A program made the translations under genes and the position numbers. Below, in pieces: positions 2,570 through 51,009 of a DNA stretch of 64,000 bases (positions within the stretch are counted from its first letter, which is position 1; every line of letters starts with the position of its first letter). Origin of the DNA: Topomyia yanbarensis. Its lineage: Eukaryota; Arthropoda; Insecta; Diptera; Culicidae. The notes beneath the pieces are model-generated. The model was not told where the DNA came from and did no database searches. It saw only the letters and a program-made list of their open reading frames with translations. The stretch spans positions 374,394,166 to 374,458,165 of the forward strand of contig NC_080672.1 of assembly GCF_030247195.1 (NCBI RefSeq), written 5' to 3'.

Positions 2570-2574
2570 CACTG
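2570..2574. repeat. Transib target duplication, left copy (CACTG)
   Basis: CACTG directly precedes the CACAGTGG terminus; the same five bases follow CCACTGTG at 6017-6021. Five GC-leaning bases is the known Transib target size. Confidence 0.9.
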
Positions 2575-3030
2575 CACAGTGGTCCAGATCGCTAATTTAG
2601 GAGGAATTTTTACTTTCTGACAAACCTGTATAATTTAGCCGTATCATGTCTTAGGATGAATTTGTGTACTTTAGAAGATGCTTCTTTTTATTGGAATAGT
2701 TATTAGGGTGGTTCTAATTTATCTAAAATACGAAAATAAACTTTTTACTGATGAAAGATAGAGCTCCACAGTCTTTCACAAAGTTGTAAAGTAACTTATT
2801 TTGAATAAATTTGTTGAACATATTAAAGCTCTATCTCTTTTAGTTTTTGTTATACAAGAAATTTAAAAAAAAAGATTAGGGTGTTCCTGAAAAAAACGTT
2901 TTTTTAGTATAACTTTCGTATCTTTTACTTTTTGTTAACACAACCTTTGAACAGCTTATTGAAAACTTCAAGCCGAGTATTTTTCTCCAAGACACCGAAG
3001 GTCTAACTTTTTTCTTTAAAAAGTTATGGA
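2575..3030 (+). repeat. Transib left terminal inverted repeat (456 bp)
   Basis: Matches the reverse complement of 5561-6016 nearly base for base; I count about four to six differences by eye. The inner end of the right arm is the 5' exon of the transposase, so this left arm carries an inverted copy of part of that exon. Confidence 0.9.
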
Positions 3031-3173
3031 CACTTTTCGTTAAAAAAATAGCCTATTTCAAGGCTCAATATCGCTGATGCGGGCACCTAAAATTGAATTC
3101 TGTTTCCACCACATGAAAGACCATACTTATTAGTATATTTGAGCAAAAATTGGCGAATACGATATTTTTTTAA
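2934..3173 (+). repeat. Internal direct repeat, copy 1 of 2
   Basis: A stretch of about 240 bp beginning at the GTTAACACAACCTTTGAACA phrase recurs, diverged, at 3501-3735. Both copies share the phrase AGTATATTTGAGCAAAAATT near the end. The two copies bracket the short + strand frame at 3364-3528. Confidence 0.7.
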
Positions 3174-3363
3174 AATTTGCAATTTAGATTTAAAGTTTGT
3201 AGTTTTGCAGGTTCAACGCATTAAAGCATTTACACACATATCGTTGTATTATGAAAAAAGCCACTTTCAAATATCATTCTCTCATCGCAGCAAGCTTTGC
3301 ATAAGTGAAACGACTGTCAAAAAAGGTTTCTGATTTTATTCGTTTTAAATAAAACTAGTAAAT

Positions 3364-3528
3364 ATGGATATTAGTCGAAGAGAGTTGGCGAATTTGCTTA
3401 TTGCTGGTAAAAAGACAGATGAACTGCTTAAGTTCATTACAAGTAGTAAACCAAATGTAAAATTGAGACTTGTTAATGTTCGAAAGAAATTTTATATTTT
3501 GTTAAAACAACCTTTGAACAGCTTTTAG
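3364..3528 (+). pseudogene. 54-codon frame, possible stray Transib N-terminal exon
   Basis: The frame starts ATG (MDISRRELANLLIAG) and looks coding, with mixed charged residues (GKKTDELLKF, VKLRLVNVRKKF). It then runs into the internal repeat and stops. The same repeat on the other strand forms the open 5' part of the transposase exon (about 5561-5678), which lacks an ATG. I infer that this is the missing first coding part, left behind in an inverted duplicate of the element's 5' end. It could also be a chance frame. Confidence 0.4.
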
Positions 3529-3735
3529 AAAACTTCAATCCACGTTTTTTCATAACTCTGAAAGTCTAACTTTATACTTTCAAAAGTTATGGAAACTTTT
3601 CGCTCATAAATAGCCCTTTTTCAAATGTCATTATCTCTGATTGGGGCAAATAAAAGTAAGTTCGGATTGAACCATAGAAAAGAACATACTTTTAAGTATA
3701 TTTGAGCAAAAATTGGAAAATATTATTTTTTTTAA
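3501..3735 (+). repeat. Internal direct repeat, copy 2 of 2
   Basis: Diverged copy of 2934-3173 in the same orientation, starting at the GTTAAAACAACCTTTGAACA phrase. Confidence 0.7.
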
Positions 3736-3927
3736 GCATGTAATTTTAAATTTACTAACCAAAGTTTTAAATTTTATCGCATAGCGACATAAAAGAAATT
3801 GCCCAAAGCCTTTGTATTTCCTTTTCTGTTTTGCTTACATATCAACAATACAGAATGTGTTCATTAAAAATAATTTGGCTATGACAATAATTTATGATTT
3901 ATATAAGGAGAATTTATTCAATGCCAA

Positions 3928-5678
3928 TTAATTCAAAAGTAGATGCATTGCATTTTCAGGTATATCCAGCGGTGCTCGTTGAATTCGACGTTTACATTTA
4001 AGAGAAATTATAGGATCTGATGAAACAAGAAGTCTCTTGAAAACGTCATCAAGATTGACGAGTCGATCGAATTTGCGTGCGTGGAATTCTCGGAATCTGC
4101 GAATACTTTTATTCCTGGTTTCTTGAACTTCTTCACTGCACATACCTACTGGCAGCATGTTATGTTGAATAATGCTTCCTCCATGGACAAGGAGTTTATG
4201 CACGGTTGGTGAGAGAGCGTACCAACCATACAGGCGTACATAAAGCAATCGTGTATCTTCGGCGTAACTCCGGTAAGCATCCGCGTTAATTCCCAATTTG
4301 CTGTTGATGATTGTTAATAGCACATACATACGTTCTAGCAACATTTCGTCCAACCCGGTTTCTTCTGCAACGACATCTCGGTTTCTGAAAAATTTTCGAG
4401 CTGTGTTACCATCGTTAGAATTTCCGCCACCTGGCAAAGGTTCGCTAATACGAAGACCTAAACGGTCACGTAACGCTTGTCGAATTTTTATTTGTCGTTC
4501 CTTAAGCTCGCTGGTATTTTTGCCTACGCGCCAACGCGGTTTTGCTAGAGCTAAACGGTAAGCAATATTCAATAGTAACTCCATTGCTCGTATTAATGCA
4601 TGTAAAGGTGAAAAAACATATAAACTATCCGGTGGATCGCTGGCTTCCAGTAAAGGATCATTCAATCGCTTTTCGGAGCGTTTGCATATATAACACGCTT
4701 GAGACGGTGTGCCTGTTACGTCATTCACTACCTTCGTATCAACCATGGAAAATATGAAGCTTGAACTAATCGGAATCTTGCGCATATTAACATTTACTAT
4801 AGTCGGGACTAATTCATCGATTTGCTTGTTCATCGCGGCAACTTCATTCTTTGTTAGTTCAGGATTTTCCTTCTTGAAAATTAATTTTACTGGTCGGCAC
4901 AGGGATACTGAAGATGGAAAATCATTATTCCAAAGAATGCAATCTCTTGACTCATCTTTCCGGCGACTAACTACACGTAAAGGTACTATAGATAGAGCAA
5001 ATATATGCGAATCGTTATACTCGAATAGTTCTCCATTTTCATCTTCGTCAACGCACATTTGCTTGTATCTATGTTCAAGTGGAAAAGAGACTGTCAGTCA
5101 AAGTTTAGAAGAAAAATAATGTTGCCTACCGGGAATGGTTGCTGCTTCCATCGCAGCCCCACTTAAAGATAACAAACGTATTATCCTCAGGATGCAGTGG
5201 TAGAACTCCAATATTCAGAAACGAGATGAGTCGTTCCACGGTATGGTTAACAAGAGCTTGAAGGGGAACATACGCACAAGAAGGCTGAACAGAAATTCCT
5301 GAAAAAAATTGTTGATTCAGGGACGAATCCTTGAGAATAGTACATACCGATCGGATAGCATAGTTTCTTTTCTTCTACTATTTTATTATACGCGGGATAA
5401 ATGTCCAAACCCTTCTGCATAACTGAGCTGCGTATGTTTTGGTACTGCGCCTTAGAAAAATCATTTTCACAAATAAATCTAAGTGCCTCCTCCGCAGTAA
5501 ACGCTTCTGCACTATGTACGGGGAACGTGCCATTTGAGCCAATATATTCTGATTCCTGATTCCATAACTTTTTAAAGAAAAAAGTTAGACTTTCGGTGTC
5601 TTGGAGAAAAATACTCGGCTTGAAGTTTTCAATAAGCTGTTCAAAGGTTGTGTTAACAAAAAGTAAAAGATACGAAAG
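3928..5678 (-). CDS. Transib transposase (RAG1-like), exons 5678-5348, 5298-5130, 5068-3928
   Basis: This is the DDE recombinase of the Transib element, which cuts at the CACAGTG ends. Exon 1 (open from 5678 but without ATG) carries CYPIG at its end. Exon 2 holds the first catalytic aspartate in KWGCDGSSNHSR. Exon 3 (376 residues from its first Met) holds the second aspartate in FSMVDTKVVNDV (D107), the zinc pair CYIC (C122, C125) and HKLLVH (H287, H292), and the catalytic glutamate in GMCSEEVQETRNK (E309). This order matches RAG1 D600, D708, C727/C730, H937/H942 and E962. Introns of 49 bp (5299-5347, GTATGT..CAG) and 61 bp (5069-5129, GTAGGC..TAG) keep the frame. About 545 residues are visible with no internal stop; the true N-terminus is missing or lies in an unrecognised exon. 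Confidence 0.85.
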
Positions 5679-6016
5679 TTATACTAAAAAAACGTTTTTT
5701 TCAGGAACACCCTAATCTTTTTTTTTTAATTTCTTGTATAACAAAAACTAAAAGAGATAGAGCTTTAATATATTCAACAAATTTATTCAAAATAAGTTAC
5801 TTTACAACTTTGTGGAAGACTGTGGAGCTCTATCTTTCATCAGTAAAAAGTTTATTATCGTATTTTAGATAAATTAGAACCACCCTAATAACTATTCCAA
5901 TAAAAAGAAGCATCTTCTAAAGTACACAAATTCATCCTAAGACATGATACGGCTAAATTATACAGGTTTGTCAGAAAGTAAAAATTCCTCCTAAATTAGC
6001 GATCTGGACCACTGTG
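5561..6016 (-). repeat. Transib right terminal inverted repeat (456 bp)
   Basis: Partner of 2575-3030. It overlaps the 5' part of transposase exon 1 (about 5561-5678) and must also hold any promoter of the gene. Confidence 0.9.
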
Positions 6017-6021
6017 CACTG
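6017..6021. repeat. Transib target duplication, right copy (CACTG)
   Basis: Second copy of the five bases at 2570-2574, directly after the CCACTGTG terminus. Confidence 0.9.
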
Positions 6022-28639: not shown

Positions 28640-28930
28640 CCCACTCCCACAAACCGACCAAGTAGGCATCACTGGCTTCATTACGGCTGAGTTTTGTAAG
28701 CGTAGCTCGACTTTGAAGTAATACACAACCTTACGAACCAGACGCTGGAATGTTAGCCAGCGGATTAGTTGCTCCGTTGCCCTCTAGTTGGGGCGAAATA
28801 CTAGCACGGCGACAGTTCCTGATCGGTAGTTGGTTGCGATGGGCCACCAGTAGCTGGGGCACTTTTGCGGACCGTCATCATCGCCAACTTCTTTCCTCCG
28901 GTGGACTGGCTGCTTGCTAGTGCTTGAACA
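28640..28930 (-). pseudogene. Histone H3 relic 2
   Basis: Minus strand, across frameshifts: KCPSYWW (from KSAPATGG), YRSGTVAV (from YRPGTVAL), FKVELRLQNSAVM and ASDAYLVGL. The relic runs from about residue 15 to residue 105 of H3, with several frameshifts and loss of the C-terminus before the stem-loop at 28602. Confidence 0.8.
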
Positions 28931-29668
28931 AATACGAATGATGAGAAAAACCGACCGACCAATATTCATATATGAAAACACGAGAAAGCACTACTATCGC
29001 TCTCCCGCTCGTTTTCGTGCCATTCCTGTGCCTTTCCTTTCCGTTCGGCTACCAATACTAGCATAACCAAAACGAATATTCTGTCCTTCCATCGCCTTCA
29101 ATTTAGTGGCCAGTGCTAGCAAACTTGCATGTTCAGTTTTTCAATAACAACATTTTCAATATTTTCAAAGAATGTTGCAGATTTGAAAAGAAGGAAGGAG
29201 AAGATTTTCACAAATTTAAATTCTTTTGTCTTATTTGTTAGCGCTGATAAAGGCTATTTAGTTTGCTACTAGCAAGGAGCTGCACAAACAAATCGATTTA
29301 TGCAGTTAATCAACGGAGGCTGCCAAAAAGTTCGAATAAAAGCATGCGACTAGTGTACTTTGCATATTCTATATTTTATCAATACTAGAGAGGATCAATA
29401 AAATAATTCAAATTGTTATAGCAACATGCAATTGTGGCAACACTGGCCATGAGATGGTGGGAGAACGCGCACATTCGTTTTAGTTATGATTGTAGTAGCA
29501 GCAGAAAGGAATGGAAAAGCAGTGCACAAAAACGAGCGAGAGAGGATAATTTAAATTCTCTTTCTTTCTTTCCACACATCGTATTTCTTATATAGCTTTC
29601 TGAAAATTATTTGTTATACACCATAGAATGTAAATTTCAGTTTAACTCTTATTAGAACACAATTAATT

Positions 29669-29684
29669 GGTCCTGTAAAGAACC
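29669..29684 (-). terminator. Mutated histone 3' stem-loop
   Basis: Minus strand reads GGTTCTTTACAGGACC. One loop base differs from the conserved TTTC, so processing is probably lost. Confidence 0.65.
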
Positions 29685-29689
29685 GTTTA

Positions 29690-29945
29690 TTGTTTTATTG
29701 CGGGAGCATAATTCAGACGCACTCCCCGCGGACACGGTGAGCCCGTTTAACTCTTATTAGAACACAGATTAGTTTCTCTGTTGCCCTTTAGTTGGGGCGA
29801 AATTCTTGCAGGGCGACAGTTCCTGATCGGGTTGCGATGAGTCACCAGTAGCTGGGGCACTTTTTCCGACCGTCGTCATCGCCAACTTCTTTCCTTCGGT
29901 GGACTGGCTGCTTGCTAGTGCTTGAACGAATACGAATGATGAGAA
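29690..29945 (-). pseudogene. Histone H3 relic 3 (N-terminal tail kept)
   Basis: Minus strand reads SQSTEGKKLAMTTVGKSAPATGD, of which KSAPATG is exact H3 tail sequence, then SGTVA-like text in a shifted frame. The histone-fold part is mostly deleted: text near 29745-29770 jumps from the C-terminal remnant to the region after residue 50. Confidence 0.78.
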
Positions 29946-30661
29946 AAACCGACCGACCAATATTCATATATGAACACACGAGAAAGCGCTACTATCGCTC
30001 TCGCTCGTTTTCGTGCCATTCCTGTGCCTTTCCTTTCCGTTCGGCTACCAATACTAGCATAACCAAAACGAATATTCTGTCTTTCCATCGCCTTCAATCT
30101 AGTGGCCAGTGCTAGCAAACTTGCATGTTCAGTTTTTCAATAACAACATTCAAACAATATTTTCAAAGAATGCTGCAGATTTGAAAAGAAGGAAAAGATT
30201 TTCACAAATTTAAATTCTTTCGTGTTATTTGTTAGCGCTGATAAAGGCTATTTAGTTTGCTACTAGCAAGGAGCTGCACAAACAAATCGATTTATGCAGT
30301 TAATCAACGGAGGCTGCCAAAAAGTTCGAATAAAAGCATGCGACTAGTGTACTTTGCACGTTCTATATTTTATCAATACTAGAGAGGATCAATAAAATAA
30401 TTCAAATTGTAATAGCGACATGCAATTGTGGCAACACTGGCCAATTGCTGGCTGGGGGAACACCCACATTCGTTTGTTATGATGGTATTAGCAGCAGAAA
30501 GGAATGGAAATGCAGTGCACGAAAACGAGCGAGAGAGGATAATTTAAATTCTCTTTCTTTCTTTCCACACATCGTATTTCTTATATAGCTTTCTGAAAAT
30601 TATTTGTTATACACCATAAAATGTAAATTTCAGTTTAACTCTTATTACAACACAATTAATT

Positions 30662-30677
30662 GGTCCTGTAAAGAACC
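30662..30677 (-). terminator. Mutated histone 3' stem-loop
   Basis: Same GGTTCTTTACAGGACC form as at 29669; the shared loop mutation links units 2 and 3. Confidence 0.65.
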
Positions 30678-30679
30678 GT

Positions 30680-31050
30680 TTATTGTTTTATTGCGGGAGC
30701 ATAATTCAGACGCACTCCCCGCGGACACGGTGAGCCACAAAGCACTATTTTGCATCCTCGAACAAACCGACCAAGTAGGCATCGTTGGCTTCTCGGGGCA
30801 TCATTACGACTGAGCTTTGTAAGCGTGGCTCGATTTTGCAGTCCTGCACAATCTCACGACCCAGACGCTGGAACGATAGCCTACTCTGTTGCCCTTTAGT
30901 TGGGGCGAAATTCTAGCAGGTCGACAGTTCCTGATCGGGTTGCGATGAGTCACCAGTAGCTGGGGCACTTTTTCCGCCGTCGTCATTGCCAACTGCTTTC
31001 CTTCGGTGGACTGGCTGCTTGCTAGTGCTTGAACGAATACGAATGATGAG
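30680..31050 (-). pseudogene. Histone H3 relic 4 (longest)
   Basis: Minus strand covers SQSTEGKQLAMTTAEK and VPQLLV (tail, shifted), then [40 protein letters not shown] and AK followed by a stop, with RGE-like text after it. It follows H3 from about residue 7 to the C-terminus with a deletion around the CAIHAKRVTIMPKD region, frameshifts and stops. Clearly not functional. Confidence 0.85.
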
Positions 31051-31060
31051 AAAAACCGAC

Positions 31061-31859
31061 CGACAGATATTTATATAATCGCGCTAATATGCACTACTAT
31101 CGCTTCCTCGCTCGTTCTCGTGCCGTGCATGAGCCTTTCCGTTCCGTCCGGCTTCTAATGGCCTAACCAAAGGAATATGCCGTCTTTCCCCCACCAACTG
31201 CTCTCGTCAAGCAACCCAATGCGAATAACCATAGGAACAAACATGTAGTGGACCTATATATAAACTTTTCATTATTTTATTGTTCGGTTGGTCCACCATT
31301 TTGACGGCTCTGTGCGGGATGGGCTGAAAATTTTCACTTTTCCGAGTCGTTTTCGAAAGATTTTTCAAAACACAATTTTTTGTTATTAGTGCATGTTATA
31401 CATACTTCAAATTTTAATACAGCATAGAGGAACATATTTGCAACAAATTGGCCTAAAAATCAAATCATTCTGTTAGGTATGATATAAGTTATTAACGTTC
31501 AAAATCTGACGCGGCGCCGCAGCCGATATTTTGAAACGGGACCCCTATATTGAAAGCTTAAATGTATTCTACATTAAAATTGATTTGGAAATGAAGTCAA
31601 ATGTGATATCAATTCATGCAAAAAAAATATCTATTGCACATTTCTAAAAGACTTATTATGACCAACAAAAATGTTGCCAAAATCGGAGTGTGCCAAAAAA
31701 GGAGCATGCCAAAAATGGAACGTGCCAAAAACGGAATCTTACTGTACTCTGGAATTTTCCAAGTGATTTCAATCATAAACAGGTCTTAAGATGCGGAACG
31801 GGTTTGGAACTCTATATGCGTTAGAAAAAAGTTGGGAATAAAAGAGTTCATTTCATCCT
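31061..31859. other. Spacer with small tandem GTGCCAAAAA-GGA repeat
   Basis: At 31681-31745 the unit GTGCCAAAAA(A/C/T)GGA repeats about four times. At 31527-31560 the text TTGAAACGGGACCCCTATAT recurs in reverse at about 63631-63650. No gene. Confidence 0.45.
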
Positions 31860-33975: not shown

Positions 33976-36092
33976 TATTTCACAAATTTTTAGAGCAAAC
34001 TTCACGTTTCGAAGTGTTACGTAAACATATTCTTGAATTTATATCGTATTGCTATGAGTAGACCGAATCGATAAAAAAAGACCTACGACAGATGTACTCG
34101 GAACAGCAGTATACTGCCCATAATCACAAGTCAGTCCCATGTTCTACGGGATTCCTTATCTACATGCGGCTGACTTGCTTTATAGCCAGTGTCACACAAC
34201 TTTAAACTGGCTTACTTGAAAAGTGATACCACACCTCCACACAGTGGCACCTCTGCATAGAAAGTTGTGACAAAATTAAATGGGTTTATATGGCTAAAAG
34301 TTTGATAAATTTTGGGTTTTTCAGAAATAAATTTTGAAATTTCATTATTATTTTTTCGACTATTTTTATGTAAACCCATTTGAAGGCGTTAGTCGTTAAA
34401 GGGTTAATATACACGTTAATAATAGTAGACAAACATATCGGTTTGCAAAACTAGTAAAAATCACAAAAAAATTTTTGGTAATATAATTTTGTTTAGGCCA
34501 TCTATTTGTAAGAAGATTTATGAGCTACGAGGCGTTTCCATATATATAAAAACTTCAGCGCAAAATGATGCCTTTATCTCATAAAACCTTACTAAATTTT
34601 GAGTTAGATTCATGATAACTGACTCGTGGGAGACCATCTCAAAAATTGTAAGACGTTTAAAGATAAATTACTGATGTGATATTCAATTTCGCAATTTATT
34701 TAAGATATATTGTTCGTCGCTTTCATTCTTCTTTCCGAAGATCTTAAAACTACTCCATTCGGCCATGTAGTTCTTGTGATATCGCCATTTGAAGTTCGAA
34801 GGTACAAACAATTCTTATGAAATGAATTGATCAGAAATCCTCGACTTGCATCAATGACATCTTAAAAATACATTTTTTCTTCGATTATTTTGAGATAATT
34901 GTCTTCAAACTGAGAGCAAAATAAAATAAATATTTACAAAATATTAACAAGACAATGATTTTTGGGGTTTTACCACTGTGCTCCAGTACGAGTCTAAATT
35001 TCTCTAACCATGACAATTGCATTTCCAGCAGCTCGTGGTGGTACATTAAGTCGCCTCAACTATCTTGTGACCAGTTTTTCGAAAAATGAAAATAAGTAAA
35101 CAAATCATCGCTGAAAAGTCCACAATCCTATATAAGGATGATAAATAGTGGCAAGCAAGAAGAATTCACCTCCGAAGCATGTGTATGTCCTACCGCGGTT
35201 TGAACATTAATCCAATAACAGGTTCTCCAACCTCGCAACACAATTTGAACTGGTAAATAAATATGGACACCCATTTGGAAATGAACCACATATCTTCTAA
35301 TCATATTTACACGTGTCGACGTTTTTGGTGTTTGCCTAATCGGTTAGCAGCCTTCGGTCTTTCTGACGGGATCCGTTCCTATATACGGTGTGTGGGAATT
35401 GTATCAATTGGAGCGCACTAACCGTCCATCGCTTTCTAACTCTTCACGTTGGATCGAGGCAAATAAAAAACGGCGGTATTTGTACGATTTGTTAGCAACA
35501 CCGCGATTGGTATATGAACTCAAATGATACGGTAAAGTAGCAGTTCTCGGGTAGGAAAGAAAAATAAAAATATAAAACAGAACATACAATTGATAATAAA
35601 TCTGTCCGAACTCTGGCGAACGAGCAGGAGGATGGTGCAATGCAACAGCGAGCGAAGAGTTCATGTTTTCATAAGTCAGGTCTAACCGAAAGTAAAAAAA
35701 AAGTTCGTTACAAATTCGATGATACGCCGACTGATCCATATGGAACGGGCCTCTGGTGGTCTGGAAAGCATGCAACATTAGTGATAATGACCAGTCGATT
35801 GCTGCTTCTGCCGCTGTTGGAGGAATTGTGCGTAGCGTCCCGCAGAGCAGAGTGTCGTAGATGTGCTGTTTTGTTCCAGTTGTATTTAATTTAAATTTAG
35901 AAATAGTTCGGTAAGCGACAAAATTAATCAAATAAAGGTATATTATGTACTAGCAGACTCGTTTAATCTTTCCGGATTCAAGTGATGGCGAGAGAAATAA
36001 TGCCTCTGTAGCAAACAGAAGTTTCGAATTGAAATATGTACATCATACTGCTTTTGAAAATTTGTTAACGAAGTTATTCAAATTTTACAGAT
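33976..36092. other. No gene supported
   Basis: A 175-codon minus-strand open frame (35404-35931) has no ATG at its 5' end and no recognisable domain; its first Met is about residue 52. I do not call it a gene. Confidence 0.35.
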
Positions 36093-36097: not shown

Positions 36098-36371
36098 TGT
36101 TGCGCATAATGCGCGCACCTCTTGGTTCACTAATCTTGATCTTGCTCTAATCTATCAACAGGCCTACGCTGTCAAATTTCCGTTAGATCGTAAACAGCGT
36201 TGGCCGGGATGGATTCGCACTAAATGTAAGCCTGAATGTGATCAATAATATATAAGCTAATGTGTATTAATTTCCAGGAAATTTATAACATTCGTTTTAA
36301 ATAAAATGTTCTATTACGAAACGGTGTTATAGAATCAGAAATGACGTCCCGGTCAGTTGCGAGACGCAACA
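36098..36371 (+). repeat. 5' LTR (274 bp)
   Basis: TG..CA ends with the inverted heptamer TGTTGCG/CGCAACA. Contains TAATATATAAGC and AAATAAAATG, possible core promoter and polyadenylation signals. Confidence 0.93.
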
Positions 36372-36862
36372 TTATAAATTTCATTTGTGGCACACTAGAT
36401 CGACGGTAGCAAACAAAAGGCTGCGTTGGCATGGAGAAATCAGCGTCAGCAGCAAAACAATAGCTACCAGCGATGGCCGTAGATATTAGCGGAAGTGAAA
36501 CCTTTATCGGGACATAGAAGTCGTTCAACAAGGGTGGAAGAAACTCGATCGTTGTGAAAGTCGGCTGGAGGCAACTAGAGCTGCTTGGACTACCGAAAAC
36601 GAACTGGGTACGCTATATGCGTAGAATTCCAAAATGTGTGTGTCGTCTGGAGCAGCAACAAAGCAGCCAGTTTAAGCGAAACGCGGAACTTTCCAACAAA
36701 CGAAATCTTCACCACCTATGAACACTTGTTTTGTTTAAATATACTATGTGTAAGATTGATTAGTTCCAAATGAGCTTTAAGTGTTGTGCAACCATGGTCG
36801 TGAATCAATCGGTGTAGTGATAGTAAAATAAAGCCCACCAACTTCATTGTACTGGGGGGGAA

Positions 36863-37136
36863 TGTTGCGCATAATGCGCGCACCTCTTGGTTCACTAATC
36901 TTGATCTTGCTCTAATCTATCAACAGGCCTACGCTGTCAAATTTCCGTTAGATCGTAAACAGCGTTGGCCGGGATGGATTCGCACTAAATGTAAGCCTGA
37001 ATGTGATCAATAATATATAAGCTAATGTGTATTAATTTCCAGGAAATTTATAACATTCGTTTTAAATAAAATGTTCTATTACGAAACGGTGTTATAGAAT
37101 CAGAAATGACGTCCCGGTCAGTTGCGAGACGCAACA
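36863..37136 (+). repeat. 3' LTR (274 bp)
   Basis: No difference from 36098-36371 found by eye. Confidence 0.93.
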
Positions 37137-40247: not shown

Positions 40248-40878
40248 AATTCTCGACAAACATATGATTACGGCCTAAAAGCCAACTGTCAAAATCCACT
40301 TTGATTGGGAATTCCAGACAAACCGTTACACGCCCATCACAAATGACATAGATTCCTCTTTTCAGCATTTCGTCGGCGAATTCGGACGCTAGCCGAGCAT
40401 CTCCCAGCATCACCGGACTGATGGGATGATCCATTCCGGAGATGGTGAATCCTGCTTTGGTCATAGCTTCCCTGAACCTTCGGGTATTGCTTTGAACTCG
40501 TGCCGTCAGACTGTTGGACTCCATAAGCATTTCGATGACTCGCTTAGCGCTGGCTACAACCGGTGGTGGCAGGGAATTCGAGAACAGATACGGACGAGAT
40601 TTTTGTCTCAGCAAATCGATTAACTCCTGCGGACCAGTCGTATAACCTCCCGCTGCTCCCCCGAGTGCTTTTCCCAGGGTAGAGTTAATGATGTCACAGC
40701 GGCCGAGCATTTTGTAGAATTCCTCCGTACCTCGGCCTGTTGGGCCGAAGAATCCTGTTGCGTGGCAGTCGTCAACGAAGGTAAGAGCATCGTATTTGTT
40801 CGCTAGGTCGAAAATCTCCGGTAACGGAGCTACGCCCGGATAGAATTTTACAATAGCATTTACCCTACAAACAATCAT
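40195..40878 (-). pseudogene. Partial glycine C-acetyltransferase copy, chimeric open frame
   Basis: The minus-strand frame holds [37 protein letters not shown], the PLP-lysine motif [14 protein letters not shown] and on to [14 protein letters not shown], close to identical to Gcat at 43587-44090. It then switches to CDGRVTVCLEFPIKVDFDSW and the inverted-repeat sequence before a stop at 40195. Upstream, the frame starts at an ATG (40878) within the inserted MITE. Both the N-terminal half and the C-terminal 40 residues of the enzyme are missing, so it cannot be active as such. The frame is still open, which points to a recent event. Confidence 0.85.
40248..40329 (+). repeat. 82-bp inverted repeat, left arm of the captured-exon element
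   Basis: AATTCTCGACAAACATATG to AAACCGTTAC pairs with 41415-41496 in reverse complement, with a few mismatches. Confidence 0.85.
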
Positions 40879-41747: not shown

Positions 41748-42949
41748 ATGGAAACAGATTTCGAACCCCTGGATCCCAGCTTGGAGAACATCATCGACCA
41801 GGAAACACTCAAGTGGATCTTTGTCGGTGGAAAGGGTGGTGTTGGCAAAACAACTTGCAGGTTAGTTACCATAGCCTCGAAACGGTTGCTTCCTGTGCAA
41901 CAATTGAGATGGATTCTGGTTTACTTTCAGTTGTAGTCTGGCAGTTCAGCTGGCTAAGGTCCGCGAGTCGGTTTTGATTATCTCCACCGATCCGGCTCAC
42001 AACATTTCCGATGCATTCGATCAAAAGTTTACTAAAGTACCGAGTAAAGTTAACGGTTTCGATAATCTGTTTGCAATGGAGATTGACCCGAACGTGGGTC
42101 TGAACGAGCTGCCGGATGAGTATTTCGAGGGAGAAAACTCGGCGATGAAGCTGAGCAAAGGAGTTTTTCAGGAGGTTATCGGAGCGCTTCCCGGGATTGA
42201 TGAGGCAATGAGTTACGCGGAAGTTATGAAGTATGTTGTTTACCCGGCGAAAGATGCGTTGAAGTTTGAATCTATTTGTACTTTTAGATTAGTCAAAGCT
42301 ATGAACTTTTCTGTGGTGGTGTTTGATACGGCACCAACAGGACACACGCTGAGACTGCTCTCGTTCCCTCAAGTCGTTGAGAAGGGATTGGGCAAGTTGC
42401 TAAGATTGAAAATGAAGCTTGCACCGTTCATCTCGCAGGTGGGATCACTCTTCGGGATGCAGGATTTCAATGCGGATACTCTAACTAGCAAACTGGAAGA
42501 GATGCTCACAATCATTCGACAGGTTAACGAACAGTTTCGAAATCCAGTGAGTTCTGTTTGGTTTAACAAATTATTTGGTAGTAGATTCATTATTCCTTTA
42601 TTCGTAGGATCAAACTACATTCGTGTGCGTGTGCATCGCCGAGTTCCTTTCGTTGTACGAAACGGAAAGGTTAGTGCAAGAGCTGACCAAGTGCGGAATC
42701 GACACTCACAATATCATCGTCAATCAGTTGCTGTTTCGTCGTGAAGGCCAGGAACCATGCACTATGTGTTCCGCCAGGTACAAGGTTCAGGAAAAATATC
42801 TAGATCAAATAGCAGATCTGTATGAAGATTTCCACGTTGTAAAGTTGCCACTGCTGGATAGTGAGGTGCGTGGGGTGGAAAATGTAAAGGTATTTTCCGA
42901 GAACCTGATCAAACCATACTGTCCGAATGGGCCGAAACAAGGGGAATAG
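41748..42949 (+). CDS. Asna1: Get3/ASNA1 ATPase, four exons (guided entry of tail-anchored proteins)
   Basis: Cytosolic ATPase that carries tail-anchored membrane proteins to the ER. Exons 41748-41860, 41931-42230, 42288-42546 and 42608-42949; introns of 70, 57, 61 bp with GT..AG borders and matching phases. They give 337 residues, normal for the family. The start is ATG 41748 ([10 protein letters not shown]), because upstream in-frame codons lack ATG. Visible: deviant Walker [11 protein letters not shown] (residues 27-36), switch [13 protein letters not shown], switch [10 protein letters not shown], and CTMC in exon 4, the dimer zinc-binding pair. AATAAA lies near 43025. Convergent with Gcat, about 500 bp between stop codons. 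All key residues are intact, so I expect a working gene. Confidence 0.97.
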
Positions 42950-43449: not shown

Positions 43450-44812
43450 TCAAGAAATCACTTTCAGTTGCTTCCCCACTTCGACGAAAGCAGCTACTGC
43501 TCGATCGATTTCTTCATCGGTATGGGCAGCGGATAGCTGCACCCGAATGCGAGCCTTCCCCTTAGGAACCACCGGATAGCTGAAACCGATGACATAGATT
43601 CCTCTTTTTAGCATTTCGTCGGCGAATTCGGACGCTAGCCGAGCATCTCCTAGCATCACCGGACTGATGGGATGATCCATTCCAGAGATGGTGAATCCTG
43701 CTTTTGTCATAGCTTCCCTAAACCTTCGGGTATTGCTTTGAACTCGCGCCGTCAGACTGTTGGATTCCATAAGCATTTCGATGACTCGCTTAGCGCTGGC
43801 TACAACCGGTGGTGGCAGGGAATTCGAGAACAGATACGGACGAGATTTTTGTCTCAGCAAATCGATTAACTCCTGCGGACCAGTCGTATAACCTCCCGCT
43901 GCTCCCCCGAGTGCTTTTCCCAGGGTAGAGTTAATGATGTCACAGCGGCCAAGCATTTTGTAGAATTCCTCCGTACCTCGGCCTGTTGGGCCGAAGAATC
44001 CTGTTGCATGGCAATCGTCGACGAAGGTAAGAGCATCGTATTTATCTGCCAGATCGAAAATCTCCGGTAACGGAGCCACGTTGCCGTCCATGGAGAAGAC
44101 ACCGTCTGTGACGATCATTTTGATTCGGGCGTCGGTAGATTTGAGTTTTTCTTCCAAATCTGAAAAAGGTATTAGGTTCTAGCTCGAAATAATTTCAAAA
44201 TTTACCTCAAAATACAAACCCTTCATATCCCGATGTAGGTATCTTGCTTTCTTTGCTTTGCACAACCGAATTCCATCAATGATGGAGGCATGATTCAGCT
44301 CGTCGGAGAATATGGCATCCTCTGGGGTTAGAACAGCTTCAAAAATGCCGGCGTTAGCATCGAAACAAGACGCATACAGAATCGTGTCTTCTCGCTGATG
44401 AAATTCCGATAGCTTCTTTTCCAGTTGCTTATGGATGTCCTGGGTACCGCAAATGAATCGCACTGAACTTAATCCCGCTCCGTACTCATCCAGTGCTTTT
44501 TTACCAGCATTGATCACCTCTTGATTAGACTGTGAAGAAACTTGTATGAGAAATAGTTTTAAAAAAATCGCAGACCTGAACTCACCGCCAATCCAAGATA
44601 GTTGTTAGCGCAGAAATTTAGTATCTTTCCCGAGGATCCTTCTACGCTGATGGAAGTCGCTTGGGGTGATACAATGATGCGTTCTTTTTTGTACGTTCCG
44701 GCATTTCGGATTTCGTCGAGCTGTGATTGGAGCACGGAACGGAGAGACTTTTGAGCACCTCTTTCCGTCGATAGGGTCTTGGCGAAATAAGCGACTGGGG
44801 TCCATAGTTTGG
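43450..44812 (-). CDS. Gcat: Glycine C-acetyltransferase (2-amino-3-ketobutyrate CoA ligase), 3' three exons
   Basis: PLP enzyme of mitochondrial threonine breakdown; it converts 2-amino-3-oxobutanoate and CoA to glycine and acetyl-CoA. Exons on the minus strand: 44812-44586, 44529-44220, 44159-43450; introns of 56 and 60 bp in phase. Exon A reads [18 protein letters not shown] and [11 protein letters not shown]; exon [21 protein letters not shown] and [16 protein letters not shown]; exon [13 protein letters not shown] and the PLP lysine in [10 protein letters not shown], ending GKQLKVIS. About 413 residues are visible. The first exon, with start codon and mitochondrial signal, is not found between 44813 and 45300; it may lie beyond the retrotransposon nest. 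The downstream copy at 40.2-41.4 kb came from exon C. Confidence 0.95.
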
Positions 44813-45589: not shown

Positions 45590-45689
45590 TACGTTTTTTT
45601 AGAATAACTACCGTTTTACACCACCGATTTCGTCCGGGTTTTTTCAATAGTGATCATTGTTACTATTTACAGCTGGTATCAGCTTGATA

Positions 45690-46286
45690 ATCATAAAAAA
45701 ATACGAAAAAACAGTTTCGCCTCTAAACTGCTAGCAAAACAGGAACAACTTAGTATCTACTACCAGAACGTGAGAGGAGTACGCACAAAAATTGACGAGT
45801 TGTTCGTCGCTGTTTCAGAGGCCGAATATGATGTCATTGTTCTAACCGAAACGTGGCTGAATGATCAAATCCATTCGATCCAGTTATTCGGCCCAAGGTA
45901 CACGGTTTACCGTAAAGATCGCGATCCAGACAGTACAGGTAAAAAACGTGGTGGTGGTGTGCTTATTGCGGTGTCCAACCGGCTCTCGTCCAAACATAAA
46001 ACGGATAGTAACGAGCTCGAACATCTATGGGTAGATATTCGCGGGCGCGATACTAATATTTGTGTAGGCGTAGTATACATTCCCCCTGATTCCGCAAGTG
46101 ATATAGATATTATTCAGAAGCACATAGACTCAGCACTTGACATCGCAACTTCCATTCAACCCAACATGGCTCATCTACTGTTTGGTGACTATAATCAGCC
46201 AGGATTTCTTTGGAAGAGTACACCCTCCGGTTATGCCTTTCCCTGGATCTCCTGTTCGTAAATGAAGAAGCTTCTATTAACTGCGC
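45690..46286 (+). pseudogene. Outer LINE ORF2, endonuclease part
   Basis: Apurinic-like endonuclease motifs in order: SIYYQNVRGVRTK, VIVLTETWLND, KKRGGGVLIAV, LEHLWVDIRG, VVYIPPDS and LLFGDYNQPGF. After PSGYAFP (about 46240) an internal deletion joins LDLLFVNEEASINC in another frame. The reading is cut at about 46287 by the inner LINE and resumes near 51010. Confidence 0.88.
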
Positions 46287-46437: not shown

Positions 46438-49400
46438 TTATGCGTTAAAATTTCTTTTATGTATAAAATATTGTGTGAGTTTTAGTTTGGACATTGTAAA
46501 ATCAATTGATTCGCAATAGCGGTTATAAACAGCCATCATTCGATTTATAGGGCCATATTTTGCATAATTTGTGCGATATGGAGTTATTGAGAATATGCTT
46601 CGGTTTCGTAGCTGTCGAGAAGGTGCATAAAAGTTCAATTTGAATAAAATTTCGGCAGAATCAATACGATGCGAGACGATATTATTAATGAACGAAAGCA
46701 TTGCAAATTCACGACGTTCCTTCAATGTTTGTATATTGATAAGCATGCAGCGTGCTTCATAAGATGGCAGAGGAAATGCTATCCAACCTAGTTTACGAAG
46801 GGCAAATAATATGAATTGTTTTTGTACAGATTCTATTCGTTCTTCATGTGTGCTTGAAAAAGGGCACCAAACGATGCTGCAATATTCCAATATCGACCTA
46901 ACATAAGCAATATATAATGTTTTGATTGTATACGGATCTACAAAATGATAACTAAAGCGTTTTATAAAACTGAGCATGTTGTTAGCTTTGTGAATAATTG
47001 TGTTATAATGATCAATAAAATTTAACTTGGAATCTAATATAACGCCTAAATCCCTAATTCTTTCACATTTTGCTACAGTCTGTCTTCCTAGGGTAATCAC
47101 AACATTCGGTGTTTGTCGTTTTCGACTAAAAGTGATTGAATTGCATTTTTTCACGTTTAGCTGTAGGAGGCTTTTTTGACACCACGTGTGGAAAACCAGA
47201 ATTTCGTTTTGGAATGTATCAATATCCTCGGCATTTCTTATCTCCAAGTAAAGTTTCATGTCATCGGCATAGATTAGTACTTTCAGTTTTTTGAGAAGGA
47301 AGGAAATATCGTTCACATATAAAATAAACAATAGAGGTCCTAAATGAGAGCCTTGTGGAACTCCTGAGGTGACTTCAATTGGATTAGATTGCTTTCCTTT
47401 GAATTTGATTATTTGCTGGCGGTTGGATAGATATGATTCTAACCACGTACGCAGCTCAGGCTCAATTCCCATCTTTTTTAATTTATAAAGTAACATTGGG
47501 ATGTCGATTCGATCAAATGCTTTACTAAAGTCTGTGTAAAGTGCTTCCACGTAGTTTCCATTGTCCATTGCAATCAGTGAATAGTTAATAAATTCTAGTA
47601 AATTTGTTGAGGTCGAACGACCTTTGAAGAAGCCATGTTGGAGGTTAGTAATTCTGTTTTTTATTTGAAGAAATATTTTTTCGTTAATGATTGATTCAAA
47701 AAGTTTCGGAATGCTGGAGATTATGGCTATTCCACGATAATTGCGAACGTCAGATTTTTTCCCAGATTTATATATAGGTACTAAGAAAGAACTCTTCCAT
47801 GTTTTGGGAAACTCTCCAGATTGTAAAGACATATTAAAGAGCCAGAACAATGGAGTTGTAAGCTCGGTTGCTAGGTTTTTCATAAATAATGGTGGAATTC
47901 CATCAGGGCCAGCACCTTTTGATGAATCCAAATGGTTTAGAGCATTGAAAATGTCCTCCACTATGACATGACTGACACCAATATCCATAGGAAAATCTAA
48001 AAGAAAAGCAAAATAATCGCGATCGCGGTCTTGTTCAGAAAAAGTTGTATATATTTCTTGGAAGAATGTTGCAAATAGGTTGCAGATTTCTTTCGGGCTA
48101 TTATGTACGTTGTCATCCAAGTGCATTGTTGATGGGAAATTGTCTGATTTTAATTTAGTTTTGACGTAGTTAAAAAAATTCTTTGGACTGGATTTAATCT
48201 GCTGTTCAGTTTTGGAGTTGTAATCCGCAAGTGCAGAATCTATGGCAATATTTAGTTTATCGCAAATGTCGAGATATTGTTCCAAGTGCTCGTTATTTTG
48301 ATTTTTCTTGTATAGCTTGTGGGCTTTTTGTTTCCTATTTTTCAGATTTTTAATTTGCCTATTGTACCAAATAGGATTCTTCGAGCTACCGTGTCGTCTT
48401 TTCTTCTTAATGGGCACCTCTTCATGAATAATTTCGAAAATTATTTTGTAAAATACGTCCAGGGCGGTTTCAATATTCGCTTCATTCCTAAGAGTATTTT
48501 GCCAGTCGACATTACCTACCTTCCGTCTGATATTGTCATAATTAGCTTTATGGTATTCAAAGACTTCCTCAAAGTCATAGACGTTGGGTTCTTGATTTTT
48601 ATGGATGAACAAAGAAAATTCAATAGCAGTATGAAAAGCTTCATTTTTCCACAAAGGAGCCAAAGATTCAGATACACAGAAATCATCCTGAGTGTTTGTA
48701 AATAAAAGGTCAAGATAGCAATTCTGTTGATTTTTTACATGATTTATTTGATTTAATCCTATGCTAGCAGTTTTGTCAGAGATGAAATTCAATGTTTCGT
48801 TTTCTCCTACGACTGGGATTAGAATATTTTCATTTTCAGAATCCGGAATAAAATCGGCATTGCGCTGGTTAAAGTCTCCGTAAATGTGAACTTTGACCTC
48901 GACCGGAAGTTCAAATAAAATTTGTTCAGCAATTTTGAAAAAGGCTTCATACGATGATATATTAGCATGCTCTGGTGGGAAATATACAGAGGCAAAAACA
49001 TGTATTTCACCTGAAATGTTCGCTTTAACCCAAACATGTTCAAATTCTTTAAACTTCACTGTGGGAAGAATTTCAGAATTAAATTGAGCCGAAACGCCTA
49101 TAAGAACTCCTCCACCAGACTTCTTTTGAGATTCTAAAAGATTTCGGTCGTCTCTGAATACGTTAAAGCCACTACCAAAAATTTCCTCACTTTTTATGCT
49201 ATCGTTCCAACTTGTTTCAGTGCCTAAAATAACAGAATAAGAGGAGCTCAATACATTACTATAGATTTTGCTCGTTTTAGATGCGCTCTGCATACGATTA
49301 AAATTTTGACAATATATCAAAATTTCTGAAAGCGTTTCTGATAAAGTTAATGGCAATTTGTCATACTTAGAAATATCATGCAAAACTATTGATCCGTTTT

Positions 49401-49461
49401 CATCCGTAACCGGTTCGTCATGGTCTGCCTCTGAAGAGTGCGTTAGGTTGGACGAAAACAC
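46438..49461 (-). CDS. Inner LINE ORF2: endonuclease and reverse transcriptase
   Basis: About 1,000 residues with no internal stop. N-terminal endonuclease: IYCQNFNRMQS, ILGTETSWND, KKSGGGVLIGV, ASVYFPPEH, HIYGDFNQRN. Reverse transcriptase from about residue 520: SSKGAGPDGIPPLFMKN, NYRGIAIISSIPKLFE, LQHGFFKGRSTSTNL, ALYTDFSKAFDRID, GVPQGSHLGPLLF and the catalytic YADD in LIYADDMKLYL. The style fits the Jockey/CR1 group. No ATG precedes the endonuclease: the frame begins after a TGA at 49468-49470 with GCA TTC GTG. It overlaps the ORF1 stop, so ORF2 may be translated by reinitiation or a frameshift. It may still be active; I see no broken catalytic motif. Confidence 0.93.
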   Translation of the reverse strand: MFSSNLTHSSEADHDEPVTDENGSIVLHDISKYDKLPLTLSETLSEILIYCQNFNRMQSASKTSKIYSNVLSSSYSVILGTETSWNDSIKSEEIFGSGFNVFRDDRNLLESQKKSGGGVLIGVSAQFNSEILPTVKFKEFEHVWVKANISGEIHVFASVYFPPEHANISSYEAFFKIAEQILFELPVEVKVHIYGDFNQRNADFIPDSENENILIPVVGENETLNFISDKTASIGLNQINHVKNQQNCYLDLLFTNTQDDFCVSESLAPLWKNEAFHTAIEFSLFIHKNQEPNVYDFEEVFEYHKANYDNIRRKVGNVDWQNTLRNEANIETALDVFYKIIFEIIHEEVPIKKKRRHGSSKNPIWYNRQIKNLKNRKQKAHKLYKKNQNNEHLEQYLDICDKLNIAIDSALADYNSKTEQQIKSSPKNFFNYVKTKLKSDNFPSTMHLDDNVHNSPKEICNLFATFFQEIYTTFSEQDRDRDYFAFLLDFPMDIGVSHVIVEDIFNALNHLDSSKGAGPDGIPPLFMKNLATELTTPLFWLFNMSLQSGEFPKTWKSSFLVPIYKSGKKSDVRNYRGIAIISSIPKLFESIINEKIFLQIKNRITNLQHGFFKGRSTSTNLLEFINYSLIAMDNGNYVEALYTDFSKAFDRIDIPMLLYKLKKMGIEPELRTWLESYLSNRQQIIKFKGKQSNPIEVTSGVPQGSHLGPLLFILYVNDISFLLKKLKVLIYADDMKLYLEIRNAEDIDTFQNEILVFHTWCQKSLLQLNVKKCNSITFSRKRQTPNVVITLGRQTVAKCERIRDLGVILDSKLNFIDHYNTIIHKANNMLSFIKRFSYHFVDPYTIKTLYIAYVRSILEYCSIVWCPFSSTHEERIESVQKQFILFALRKLGWIAFPLPSYEARCMLINIQTLKERREFAMLSFINNIVSHRIDSAEILFKLNFYAPSRQLRNRSIFSITPYRTNYAKYGPINRMMAVYNRYCESIDFTMSKLKLTQYFIHKRNFNA

Positions 49462-50906
49462 GAATGCTCACAGGAACAAGCTGAACAGCGCTGAGAAAAG
49501 GAATTCGTCAGGACGGGGGTTACAAACCTATCTGGTGCGAAAGTTGAGTTAAATTGATGTACAACCGGGTATGGATTCAGTGTTTCACCACGTTGAAACC
49601 TGATACCACGCTGATTTTCAAACGGAGGCCTAGAGAATTGCACCCTTGCCGCCGCAAGTAGATCCTTATCCCGGGGAAGAGAGTTGCCAGCTGTTGGACG
49701 ACCGCATTGCGTATTGTTGTTGTTGTTGCGATTATTGCTGCTATTGTTGTTGCGATTGTTGTTACGATTATTGTTGCTATTGTTGTTGCTATTGTTGTTG
49801 TCAATGAGGTTATAGTTATAATAACTGCTTCTGGATATCTGATGTTTATTTGTCTCATTAGTATTACGGCTACGTTGGTGTCCGTTTTTATTGCGATCAT
49901 TTATTACCCGATGCAACTGCTTTTTATTAGCTTTTCTTCGTGCCATCGCCCTATCTTTCATCTTTTGCTGTTGAATTCTACGCTGATTACGTGTGTCGTA
50001 CTCCGTCCAGTCAGAGCGCCACACTTTCTTCGAACCCAAAAAGCGCCACCCTTCAGTGGCTTCGGCAGTGGAACGGTGACCTGAGTCACCCGATTTTGTT
50101 GATTGGGCATTTAATTCGTCCATCAAGCTGGGGCCCGCTGGTGGCAAACAAGCATCGCGTATACTGCTATCCAAAGCGTTAATTGAGCCGGCAAAAGATT
50201 GTACTTCTTTGAGAATGTCACTGCCAACTGAATTTGTTATAATTTTCACTTCGTCTAAAACTTCACGTGTAGGACGCGATTCACTCAGGTAGTGTTCATT
50301 ACAATGAGCTGCCATATCTATGGTAAGGGTGCTCAAGTTCTGAACTTCGCTGCAGATTTTTTTCAATTCTCTGGTCAAATCGGCAGTGAGATCATTTACA
50401 TACTCTTCAATGTGTTTTTTTGTGGATCCCATAGATATGTTGAATAGTGATGTGATATGGTTTTTCAGCGTGACCAGCTCATCGGCCTTATTAAAAGAAT
50501 TACTGTCAATGGCCTGCGATAGTGCCGATACAGCATTTGCCACTTGCGACGATGTGTTTATGTTCACATTCGCCACTGATTCTTTAAGCTGCAGCTCAAC
50601 ATTTTCGAATAAGTCAACAATTGAATTGAACTTTTTTATGTCGGCTGCTATTTGTAAGTTGCAGTCCGTTTGCGTAGTTATAGATTCAAATAATTTTTCC
50701 TGTTGGTACAGCACTTTTCGTGTGTCTATGCCTACCTTTAGATTATGCTGGCAATCTGCACACAGGGGAATCATGAAGTGCGAGATAAATTCTTCTTGAT
50801 TTCGCTGGACTCCTACACAAGCTGCATGATAACATTTTCTGCAGAATTCACACTGCCACAAGAAACGATCATCGCTGATATTACAAGATGTCACACTGCA
50901 GCTCAT
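49443..50906 (-). CDS. Inner LINE ORF1: PHD-finger protein with Asn-rich tract
   Basis: 487 residues from a true ATG at 50906. The N-terminus has a zinc finger of PHD type: CSVTSC, WQCEFCRKCYHAACVG and PLCADCQ. A probable coiled-coil middle follows (many L, I, K, E repeats around residues 60-215). A low-complexity Asn/Arg run lies around residues 355-395 (NNNSNNNSNNNRNNN). Such ORF1 proteins occur in CR1/Jockey-type LINEs and bind the element RNA; the function here is inferred from position. Its stop (49443) lies 19 bases inside the ORF2 frame. Confidence 0.9.
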   Translation of the reverse strand: MSCSVTSCNISDDRFLWQCEFCRKCYHAACVGVQRNQEEFISHFMIPLCADCQHNLKVGIDTRKVLYQQEKLFESITTQTDCNLQIAADIKKFNSIVDLFENVELQLKESVANVNINTSSQVANAVSALSQAIDSNSFNKADELVTLKNHITSLFNISMGSTKKHIEEYVNDLTADLTRELKKICSEVQNLSTLTIDMAAHCNEHYLSESRPTREVLDEVKIITNSVGSDILKEVQSFAGSINALDSSIRDACLPPAGPSLMDELNAQSTKSGDSGHRSTAEATEGWRFLGSKKVWRSDWTEYDTRNQRRIQQQKMKDRAMARRKANKKQLHRVINDRNKNGHQRSRNTNETNKHQISRSSYYNYNLIDNNNSNNNSNNNRNNNRNNNSSNNRNNNNNTQCGRPTAGNSLPRDKDLLAAARVQFSRPPFENQRGIRFQRGETLNPYPVVHQFNSTFAPDRFVTPVLTNSFSQRCSACSCEHSCFRPT

Positions 50907-51009
50907 TATGATAACCGTTGTTTAATAGGATTGAACACACGCGCGACGGTAGAAAGATAAATAAATAACAATTAACTGCGGACCGTAAAAACACGTCTAT
51001 ACTCAAAGG

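What the first reader, a model, noticed from the sequence alone, without database searches (positions are those of the whole stretch)
2570..6021. Transib element whose termini are exactly the V(D)J heptamer CACAGTG
Seen: CACTG-CACAGTGG ... CCACTGTG-CACTG, with a spliced DDE transposase inside that keeps all RAG1 landmarks (three acidic residues, CYIC and HKLLVH zinc ligands). Known: Transib is the transposon group related to RAG1, and it uses CAC-type heptamers and 5-bp GC-leaning targets. Inference: a fairly young element whose end is the preferred RAG heptamer, useful for comparing end recognition between Transib and RAG.
Basis: partly seen in the sequence, partly recalled or inferred. Interest (0 to 1): 0.8.

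Follow-up and report, generated by a model that had tools for sequence, protein, structure and literature searches.

The report
Deleted copy of young Transib family
This is a shortened, probably non-self-sufficient copy of a very young, several-hundred-copy jumping-gene family in a fly-like insect, related to the enzyme that shuffles our antibody genes, whose ends carry exactly that enzyme's favourite recognition word.

Summary
Window 2575-6016 is a Transib transposon flanked by CACTG, ending in CACAGTG on both sides, with a RAG1-like DDE/zinc core on the minus strand. But this copy does not keep all landmarks. In the host genome (1.17 Gb) an intact copy is 4.2 kb, has 915-bp inverted repeats, and encodes a 648-aa, three-exon transposase starting inside the right repeat. 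The window copy lost 806 bp (49 bp of filler instead), with the start and the NBD-like domain; probably it moves only in trans. The family is young: 767 exact 27-bp ends; 36 full-length copies average 0.17% from their majority, 32 of 36 with an intact gene; five insertions have matching empty repeats. CACAGTG is the family's end (66 of 66 ends in copies found without requiring it). Targets are CANTG (31 of 40 copies picked blind to target, 9 one base off), as in CCANTGG of Drosophila hopper and transib2. No RSS nonamer at 12 or 23. It is a new family of a known kind, rich in intact copies. RSS-identical Transib ends were already reported. Transposition itself was not shown.

The parts
2570..2574 (.). 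target site duplication CACTG, left
   Evidence: sequence; CANTG is the family target
2575..2581 (+). terminal heptamer CACAGTG, left end
2575..3489 (+). left terminal inverted repeat, 915 bp, full length as in intact copy L011; its inner end mirrors the first codons of the transposase
   Evidence: 99.45% against the right repeat of L011
3366..3489 (+). mirror image of the start of exon 1 (MDISRREL...), not a working exon here; in intact copies the same stretch at the other end starts the gene
3928..5068 (-). transposase exon 3 (second acid, C-C and H-H zinc ligands, last acid, stop)
5069..5129 (-). intron 2 (GTAGGC...ACATAG, 61 bp)
5130..5298 (-). transposase exon 2 (first acid, KWGCDG)
5299..5347 (-). 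intron 1 (GTATGT...TTTCAG, 49 bp)
5348..5511 (-). remaining 3' part of exon 1; the first about 157 codons, with the NBD-like domain, are deleted
   Evidence: the NBD-region model finds nothing in the element
5512..5560 (.). 49-bp filler at the deletion junction, in place of 806 bp of the intact element (positions 2938-3743 of L011); no source found in L011 or elsewhere in the window
5561..6016 (-). right terminal inverted repeat, outer 456 bp only; the inner 459 bp are deleted
6010..6016 (-). terminal heptamer CACAGTG (read inward), right end
6017..6021 (.). target site duplication CACTG, right

Best explanation
The feature is an internally deleted copy of a new, very young Transib family. Intact members (about 4.2 kb) carry about 915-bp inverted repeats and one gene for a 648-aa RAG1-like transposase, read from the right repeat inward. 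The enzyme is inferred to recognise the CACAGTG ends, cut the element out by nick and hairpin as HzTransib and RAG do, and insert it into CANTG, leaving a 5-bp duplication. The window copy arose when 806 bp were lost and 49 bp of filler added, probably during interrupted repair after an excision. It keeps both ends, so it can probably still be moved by enzyme made from intact copies, but it cannot make the full enzyme itself. Shown: anatomy, ends, target, number of ends, intact genes elsewhere, empty-site matches for five other copies. Inferred: cleavage chemistry, present activity, how the deletion arose, mobility of this copy.
For: HzTransib (6pqn) matches at 6.3e-83, and at 1.9e-187 with a 21-row family profile that also reaches RAG1 and RAG1L. 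D, D, E, C-C and H-H are invariant across 20 relatives and the window. Genome: 767 exact 27-bp ends, 0 with the pattern read backwards. 36 full-length copies among 53 fetched with both ends; 32 of the 36 with an intact 648-aa gene; mean 0.168% from the majority. CACAGTG at 66 of 66 ends of the 33 copies, the window's included, that were fetched by whole-element similarity and had both ends. Perfect duplication in 40 of 40 copies picked without regard to target; CANTG in 31, one base off in 9. Matching empty repeats for L029, L045, L055, L059, L032. Deletion mapped against intact L011. Derivatives that moved: L046, L051 and L059 share one deletion junction in three different sites, L054 and L056 another in two.
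Against: No expression, excision or transposition data; the family may have stopped moving recently. Changes in the gene are close to neutral in kind (22 silent, 66 replacing codon changes; ratio 0.87), although per site the gene has fewer changes than the rest (0.00126 against 0.00205). 5 of the 33 best-match copies with both ends have unequal flanks instead of a perfect duplication. No empty site was found for the window copy itself. Its own junction could not be counted genome-wide, so it is unknown whether this deleted form ever moved; its duplication fits insertion before or after the deletion equally.
Confidence: 0.94

Rival explanations
1. The window copy is itself a complete, autonomous Transib (implied by the first reader).
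For: About 490 codons are open and conserved. HzTransib's solved chain begins at the same domain (chain residue 6 or 7), its deduced protein is 489 aa (PMC1852546, passages), and it is called functional (PMC8355894, section read), so a core-sized enzyme can work.
Against: The intact gene has 648 codons starting in the right repeat; the window lacks the first about 157 and has no in-frame ATG ahead of the core. The NBD-region model scores 62.8 bits or more in 20 of 20 relatives (leave-one-out) and 55.8 in L011, but its best window hit is E 0.55, outside the element.
Confidence: 0.04
2. The element was rearranged by an internal inversion, putting the gene's start in the opposite direction (my own model).
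For: The N-terminal peptide lies on the plus strand at 3370-3504, the core on the minus strand.
Against: Intact L011 has the same plus-strand peptide, because it lies in a 915-bp inverted repeat; the gene start is its mirror image at the right end.
Confidence: 0.01
3. A RAG-like (RAG1L-RAG2L) transposon rather than Transib.
For: Shared core and heptamer.
Against: Far closer to HzTransib than to RAG1L (1.9e-187 against 2.6e-15 for 6b40). No second long gene: apart from the transposase pieces the longest frame of the window element is 138 aa, antisense to the gene, and the 806 bp missing here are too short for a RAG2L. No kelch model was run.
Confidence: 0.01
4. The deletion or the many near-identical copies are assembly artefacts.
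For: Near-identical repeats are hard to assemble; no reads were available.
Against: 52 of 53 flank pairs are distinct and 48 of the 53 have a perfect duplication. The filler at the window junction has no source in L011 or elsewhere in the window (hits to the other fetched copies were not printed).
Confidence: 0.03

Closest known systems
Drosophila melanogaster hopper and transib1-4 (Transib superfamily)
   Same: 5-bp duplications; target motif CCANTGG for hopper and transib2 (PMC3276498, passages) against CANTG with weak C/G outside here (full CCANTGG 5 of 40).
   Different: Inverted repeats of 33 bp (hopper) and 40-45 bp (transib1-4), elements of 1.4-2.9 kb, 3-27 reference copies (PMC10299278, passages), against 915 bp, 4.2 kb and 767 exact ends here.
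Hztransib of Helicoverpa zea (6pqn, 6pqr, 6pr5)
   Same: Core with the same acids (D126, D225, E436 by PMC6941560, passages; by hand I counted chain residues 109, 208 and 419, a constant offset of 17) and zinc ligands; 5-bp duplication; reported to have long inverted repeats (PMC1852546, passages).
   Different: Its solved chain starts at the core, without the N-terminal 160 residues of the intact family here; its duplication is GCTCG. Its heptamer was not in the passages I saw.
Transib-like genes of mosquitoes (Aedes aegypti AAEL003578, Culex quinquefasciatus A0A1S4KHE3)
   Same: Among the nearest named relatives: 58% over 74% and 59% over 53% of the query; same 5-row group in the tree, support 91, below the 95 mark.
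   Different: Only proteins seen; ends and targets not seen.
Vertebrate RAG1 and V(D)J recombination signal
   Same: DDE and zinc residues align; end heptamer identical to the RSS consensus CACAGTG (consensus as stated in PMC8289069, passages).
   Different: No nonamer: 2 of 9 at both the 12 and 23 positions. No RAG2.

Membership tests
Transib superfamily | RAG1-like transposase: three acids with C-C and H-H zinc ligands | tested here: met
   (PF12940 26.8 bits, cutoff 25)
Transib superfamily | 5-bp target site duplication | tested here: met
   window CACTG; 40 of 40 blind-picked copies perfect; 28 of 36 best-match copies perfect, 5 not, 3 without a right end in the fetched stretch
Transib superfamily | termini beginning CAC, RSS-heptamer-like | tested here: met
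   106 of 106 ends of 53 copies CACAGTG (40 of these ends were picked by a pattern that required it, 66 were not)
Transib superfamily | target motif CANTG or CCANTGG as in hopper and transib2 | tested here: met
   CANTG 31 of 40, remaining 9 one base off; full CCANTGG only 5 of 40
Transib superfamily | NBD-like N-terminal domain (GRP), reported for Transib subgroups I and II (PMC9435367, passage) | tested here: met
   met for intact family copy L011 (55.8 bits; motif GRK rather than GRP); NOT met for the window copy
Transib superfamily | single gene, no RAG2-like partner | tested here: met
   no second long frame on either strand of the window copy; of intact L011 only the gene's strand was read; no kelch model was run
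autonomous element (this copy) | complete transposase gene | tested here: not met
   first about 157 of 648 codons deleted
RAG-like (RAGL) transposon | RAG2L gene beside RAG1L | tested here: not met
   the missing 806 bp leave no room
V(D)J recombination signal | heptamer plus nonamer at 12 or 23 bp | tested here: not met
   heptamer exact; nonamer 2 of 9 at both spacings, best 6 of 9 at spacer 36 (a score of 6 or more occurs at 1.9% of window positions)
active transposon | excision and reinsertion observed | not testable with these tools
   only indirect: youth, intact genes, empty repeats, derivatives in several sites

The most novel reading that the evidence does not exclude
A currently mobile, high-copy Transib whose ends are exactly the RAG-preferred heptamer, so that one natural system can test end recognition and target choice of the RAG lineage together. 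Boldest part: CANTG is chosen because its two pyrimidine-purine steps (CA and TG) lie 3 bp apart, where a preprint on RAG says target DNA must be kinked twice 3 bp apart (PMC11844651, passages). 36 of 40 targets keep both steps, but 31 of these are CANTG itself; of the 9 targets one base off, 5 keep both steps and 4 lose one, where 3 of 9 would be expected if all single changes were equal. In the symmetrised set all five changes at the second position are A to G, which keeps the step, while all four at the first position break it.
Probability: 0.45. Interest if true: 0.65.

Novelty: new member of a known kind. Interest (0 to 1): 0.5.

Why it matters
A 2015 paper says autonomous Transibs are typically present as one or at most a few copies per genome (PMC4411706, passages). 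Here 32 intact genes were found among the 36 full-length copies examined, nearly identical, with an exact RSS heptamer, mapped targets and matching empty sites, all in one genome. That makes end choice, target choice and decay of Transib testable in a natural population, and offers a second enzyme, with its N-terminal domain, to compare with HzTransib and RAG1.

Tried and rejected

Peptide before 5511: I first read repeat and filler sequence as coding and left it, whole or in part, in the queries; only from about AEAF on is it shared with the intact gene.

RSS nonamer: none here. Viral and bacterial contig collections: the pattern scans confirmed no relative. Kapitonov and Jurka 2005 is not held, so its table of Transib ends was not seen. 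A search for heptamer words in papers listed 20 of 1,671 papers, none with the word Transib. Novelty of the target motif was considered and dropped after PMC3276498.

Bias: the first 36 copies were ranked with a query that held CACTG, so their target counts (22 of 28 CANTG) are not independent; the 40 copies from the listing are. That listing was cut after the first part of contig C1. The 40 are the listed pairs of facing ends within 8 kb, picked by eye, less two already fetched; two pairs 12 and 30 kb apart and ends without a partner were left out, and the pattern required an exact 27-bp end on both sides. L048 and L049 are one duplicated insertion, so 39 independent, 30 of 39 CANTG. Of 48 joined flanks compared with the window only, five gave empty sites; L027 and L050 (73-78%) gave no clean one, and the window copy gave none.

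Not obtained: genome counts of CANTG plus end, of ends without requiring the heptamer, and of the window's own deletion junction (the last was never sent).

Full report
The observation. At 2570-6021 the window has CACTG, CACAGTGG ... CCACTGTG, CACTG as described. The arms are inverted repeats of 456 bp with 5 mismatches. The minus strand encodes a transposase core in three pieces joined by two short introns with GT...AG borders. It is not chance: the outer 24 bp occur only at these two places in the window, mean 0.00 in 100 shuffles.

What the protein is. The spliced core matches the solved Helicoverpa zea Transib transposase (E 6.3e-83) and Pfam RAG1 above its cutoff (26.8 bits against 25). 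With a 21-row profile the match to that enzyme is 1.9e-187 and reaches RAG1L and vertebrate RAG1. Across 20 relatives and the window the three acids, the C-C pair and the H-H pair are invariant. They lie against RAG1's acids and zinc ligands in the alignments; that the RAG1 residues are D600, D708, E962, C727, C730, H937 and H942 is recalled.

What is missing. Full-length relatives of about 650-740 residues begin with an N-terminal stretch that in most holds a GRP motif (90% or more of rows) and aligns with the RAG1 nonamer-binding region; PMC9435367 reports this domain for both Transib subgroups (passage). A model of that stretch finds 20 of 20 relatives in leave-one-out tests (62.8-137.5 bits) but nothing in the window element (best window hit E 0.55, elsewhere). 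The start of the gene appears on the wrong strand, at 3370-3504. I first took this for an inversion.

The genome settles it. The host genome has 1,168,131,283 bases. Of 1570 candidates 36 were scored; they match the window from 2570 (or a few bases further in) to 5511 at an identity rounded to 100%, and most are followed by about 347 bp absent from the window and then an inverted copy of the first 920 bases of the query. In intact copy L011 (4199 bp) the inverted repeats are 915 bp, 99.67% alike, and their inner ends hold the first codons, so the plus-strand peptide at the left is only the mirror image of the true start at the right. L011 encodes one 648-aa protein in three exons, with the N-terminal stretch present (GKGKGRKRKPFSEICRRAKIKRL; 55.8 bits). 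Against L011 the window copy lacks 806 bp (2938-3743) and has 49 bp of filler, at window 5512-5560. It is a deletion derivative. The core remains open, but no ATG precedes it in frame, so it is probably not self-sufficient; a core-sized protein made from another start cannot be excluded, the more so as Hztransib's deduced protein has only 489 aa.

Youth and number. The exact 27-bp end occurs 382 times forward and 385 times reverse, 0 with the pattern read backwards; two ends a copy would make some 380 copies, but not every end has a partner. Of 53 copies fetched with both ends, 36 are full length (4150-4250 bp), and 32 of these 36 have an intact gene; mean distance from the majority is 0.168%, largest 0.692%. 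Twenty-nine of the 36 were chosen by similarity to the window, which favours young copies; among the 20 copies read in full from the C1 listing 7 are full length, and none of the 4 broken genes is among them. With a fly mutation rate of about 3e-9 per site and generation (recalled) this is roughly half a million generations; that is inference. 52 of 53 flank pairs differ.

Ends. In the 33 best-match copies with both ends (the window's among them), which were not found by requiring the heptamer, all 66 ends read CACAGTG. Because the copies are so young, and the best-matching were taken, this shows the end of one recent source, not long-term constraint.

Targets and empty sites. In 40 copies chosen without regard to the target, 40 of 40 have a perfect 5-bp duplication; 31 are CANTG and 9 differ by one base (chance per site 0.0034). 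In the best-match set 28 of 36 are perfect, 5 have unequal flanks and 3 lack a right end in the stretch fetched. Joined flanks of five insertions align through a single copy of the target to uninterrupted repeats in the window: L029 (94.0%), L045 (85.8%), L055 (87.0%), L059 (96.6% and 94.1%), L032 (85.7% and 85.2%, target CGATG against CGGTG); two weaker matches gave no clean site. Drosophila hopper and transib2 use CCANTGG (PMC3276498, passages), so the target is a shared Transib trait, not new; full CCANTGG is met by only 5 of 40 here.

Decay. Among the 20 copies read in full from C1 are plain deletions, insertions and near-palindromes. Near-palindromes in which the inverted left side reaches beyond the 915-bp repeat are L048/L049 (one insertion, duplicated) and L061, and in part L055. 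L046, L051 and L059 share one deletion junction in three different sites, and L054 and L056 another in two, so these derivatives moved after they formed. Filler at the window junction and the palindromes fit interrupted repair after excision, as known for P elements (recalled); this step is inference.

Host. A conserved host gene in the window is nearest, among named proteins of the 120 listed, to gall midges (Sitodiplosis, 79%), then Hermetia and Culicoides. Among the transposase's nearest named relatives are mosquito proteins. The genome has three very large contigs (218, 470, 428 Mb). A dipteran is well supported; the species is not known to me.

Comparison and novelty. What was tested places the family in Transib. 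New, as far as I could see, are the family, its 915-bp repeats that hold the start of the gene, and the number of intact copies; PMC4411706 describes autonomous Transibs as typically one or at most a few per genome (passages). Known are RSS-identical heptamers in some Transibs (PMC6941560, PMC8355894), long inverted repeats in Hztransib and the target. The paper searches were made; I saw no report of this family, but no species name was available to search for.

Most novel reading. CANTG has two easily kinked pyrimidine-purine steps 3 bp apart, the spacing at which RAG target DNA is said to be kinked. 36 of 40 targets keep both, but 31 of these are CANTG itself; of the 9 others 5 keep both and 4 do not. 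This is suggestive, not shown.

Noticed in passing
34240-34980: A second candidate Transib-like insertion: CACAGTGG at both ends, 741 bp, flanked by CTCCA on both sides. Only 8 bp of inverted repeat seen. Only two such exact pairs lie within 8 kb of each other in the window and both have matching 5-bp flanks. The left end has ACAAAATTA after 23 bp (6 of 9 to the RSS nonamer), which is weak given four positions tested.
   Followed up: partly
2923-3192 and 3490-3754: A 77% direct repeat of about 270 bp inside the element, one copy within the left inverted repeat and one just inside it; origin unknown.
   Followed up: partly
L048, L049, L061, L055: Near-palindromic copies in which the right side is an inverted copy of the left beyond the 915-bp repeat, L055 in part; L048 and L049 have identical flanks, so one insertion was duplicated.
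   Followed up: partly
L019, L016, L020, L030, L035: Copies with both ends but unequal 5-bp flanks, for example CATTG against CAATG in L019; possible recombination between copies or small end changes.
   Followed up: no
40343-40642 and 43589-43888: Two 98% alike pieces of a 2-amino-3-ketobutyrate CoA ligase gene 3.2 kb apart, with an ArsA-type ATPase reading frame between them on the other strand (41908-42744).
   Followed up: partly
46438-50921: LINE-like pair: 1009-aa reverse transcriptase frame and a 492-aa frame before it, both open; further endonuclease and reverse transcriptase frames at 45608-46261 and 51963-53180.
   Followed up: no
28832-31109 and 36098-37136: Direct repeats with spacings of about 995 bp (a third, weaker copy 1107 bp on) and 765 bp; L059 inserted into another copy of the 995-bp repeat.
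   Followed up: no
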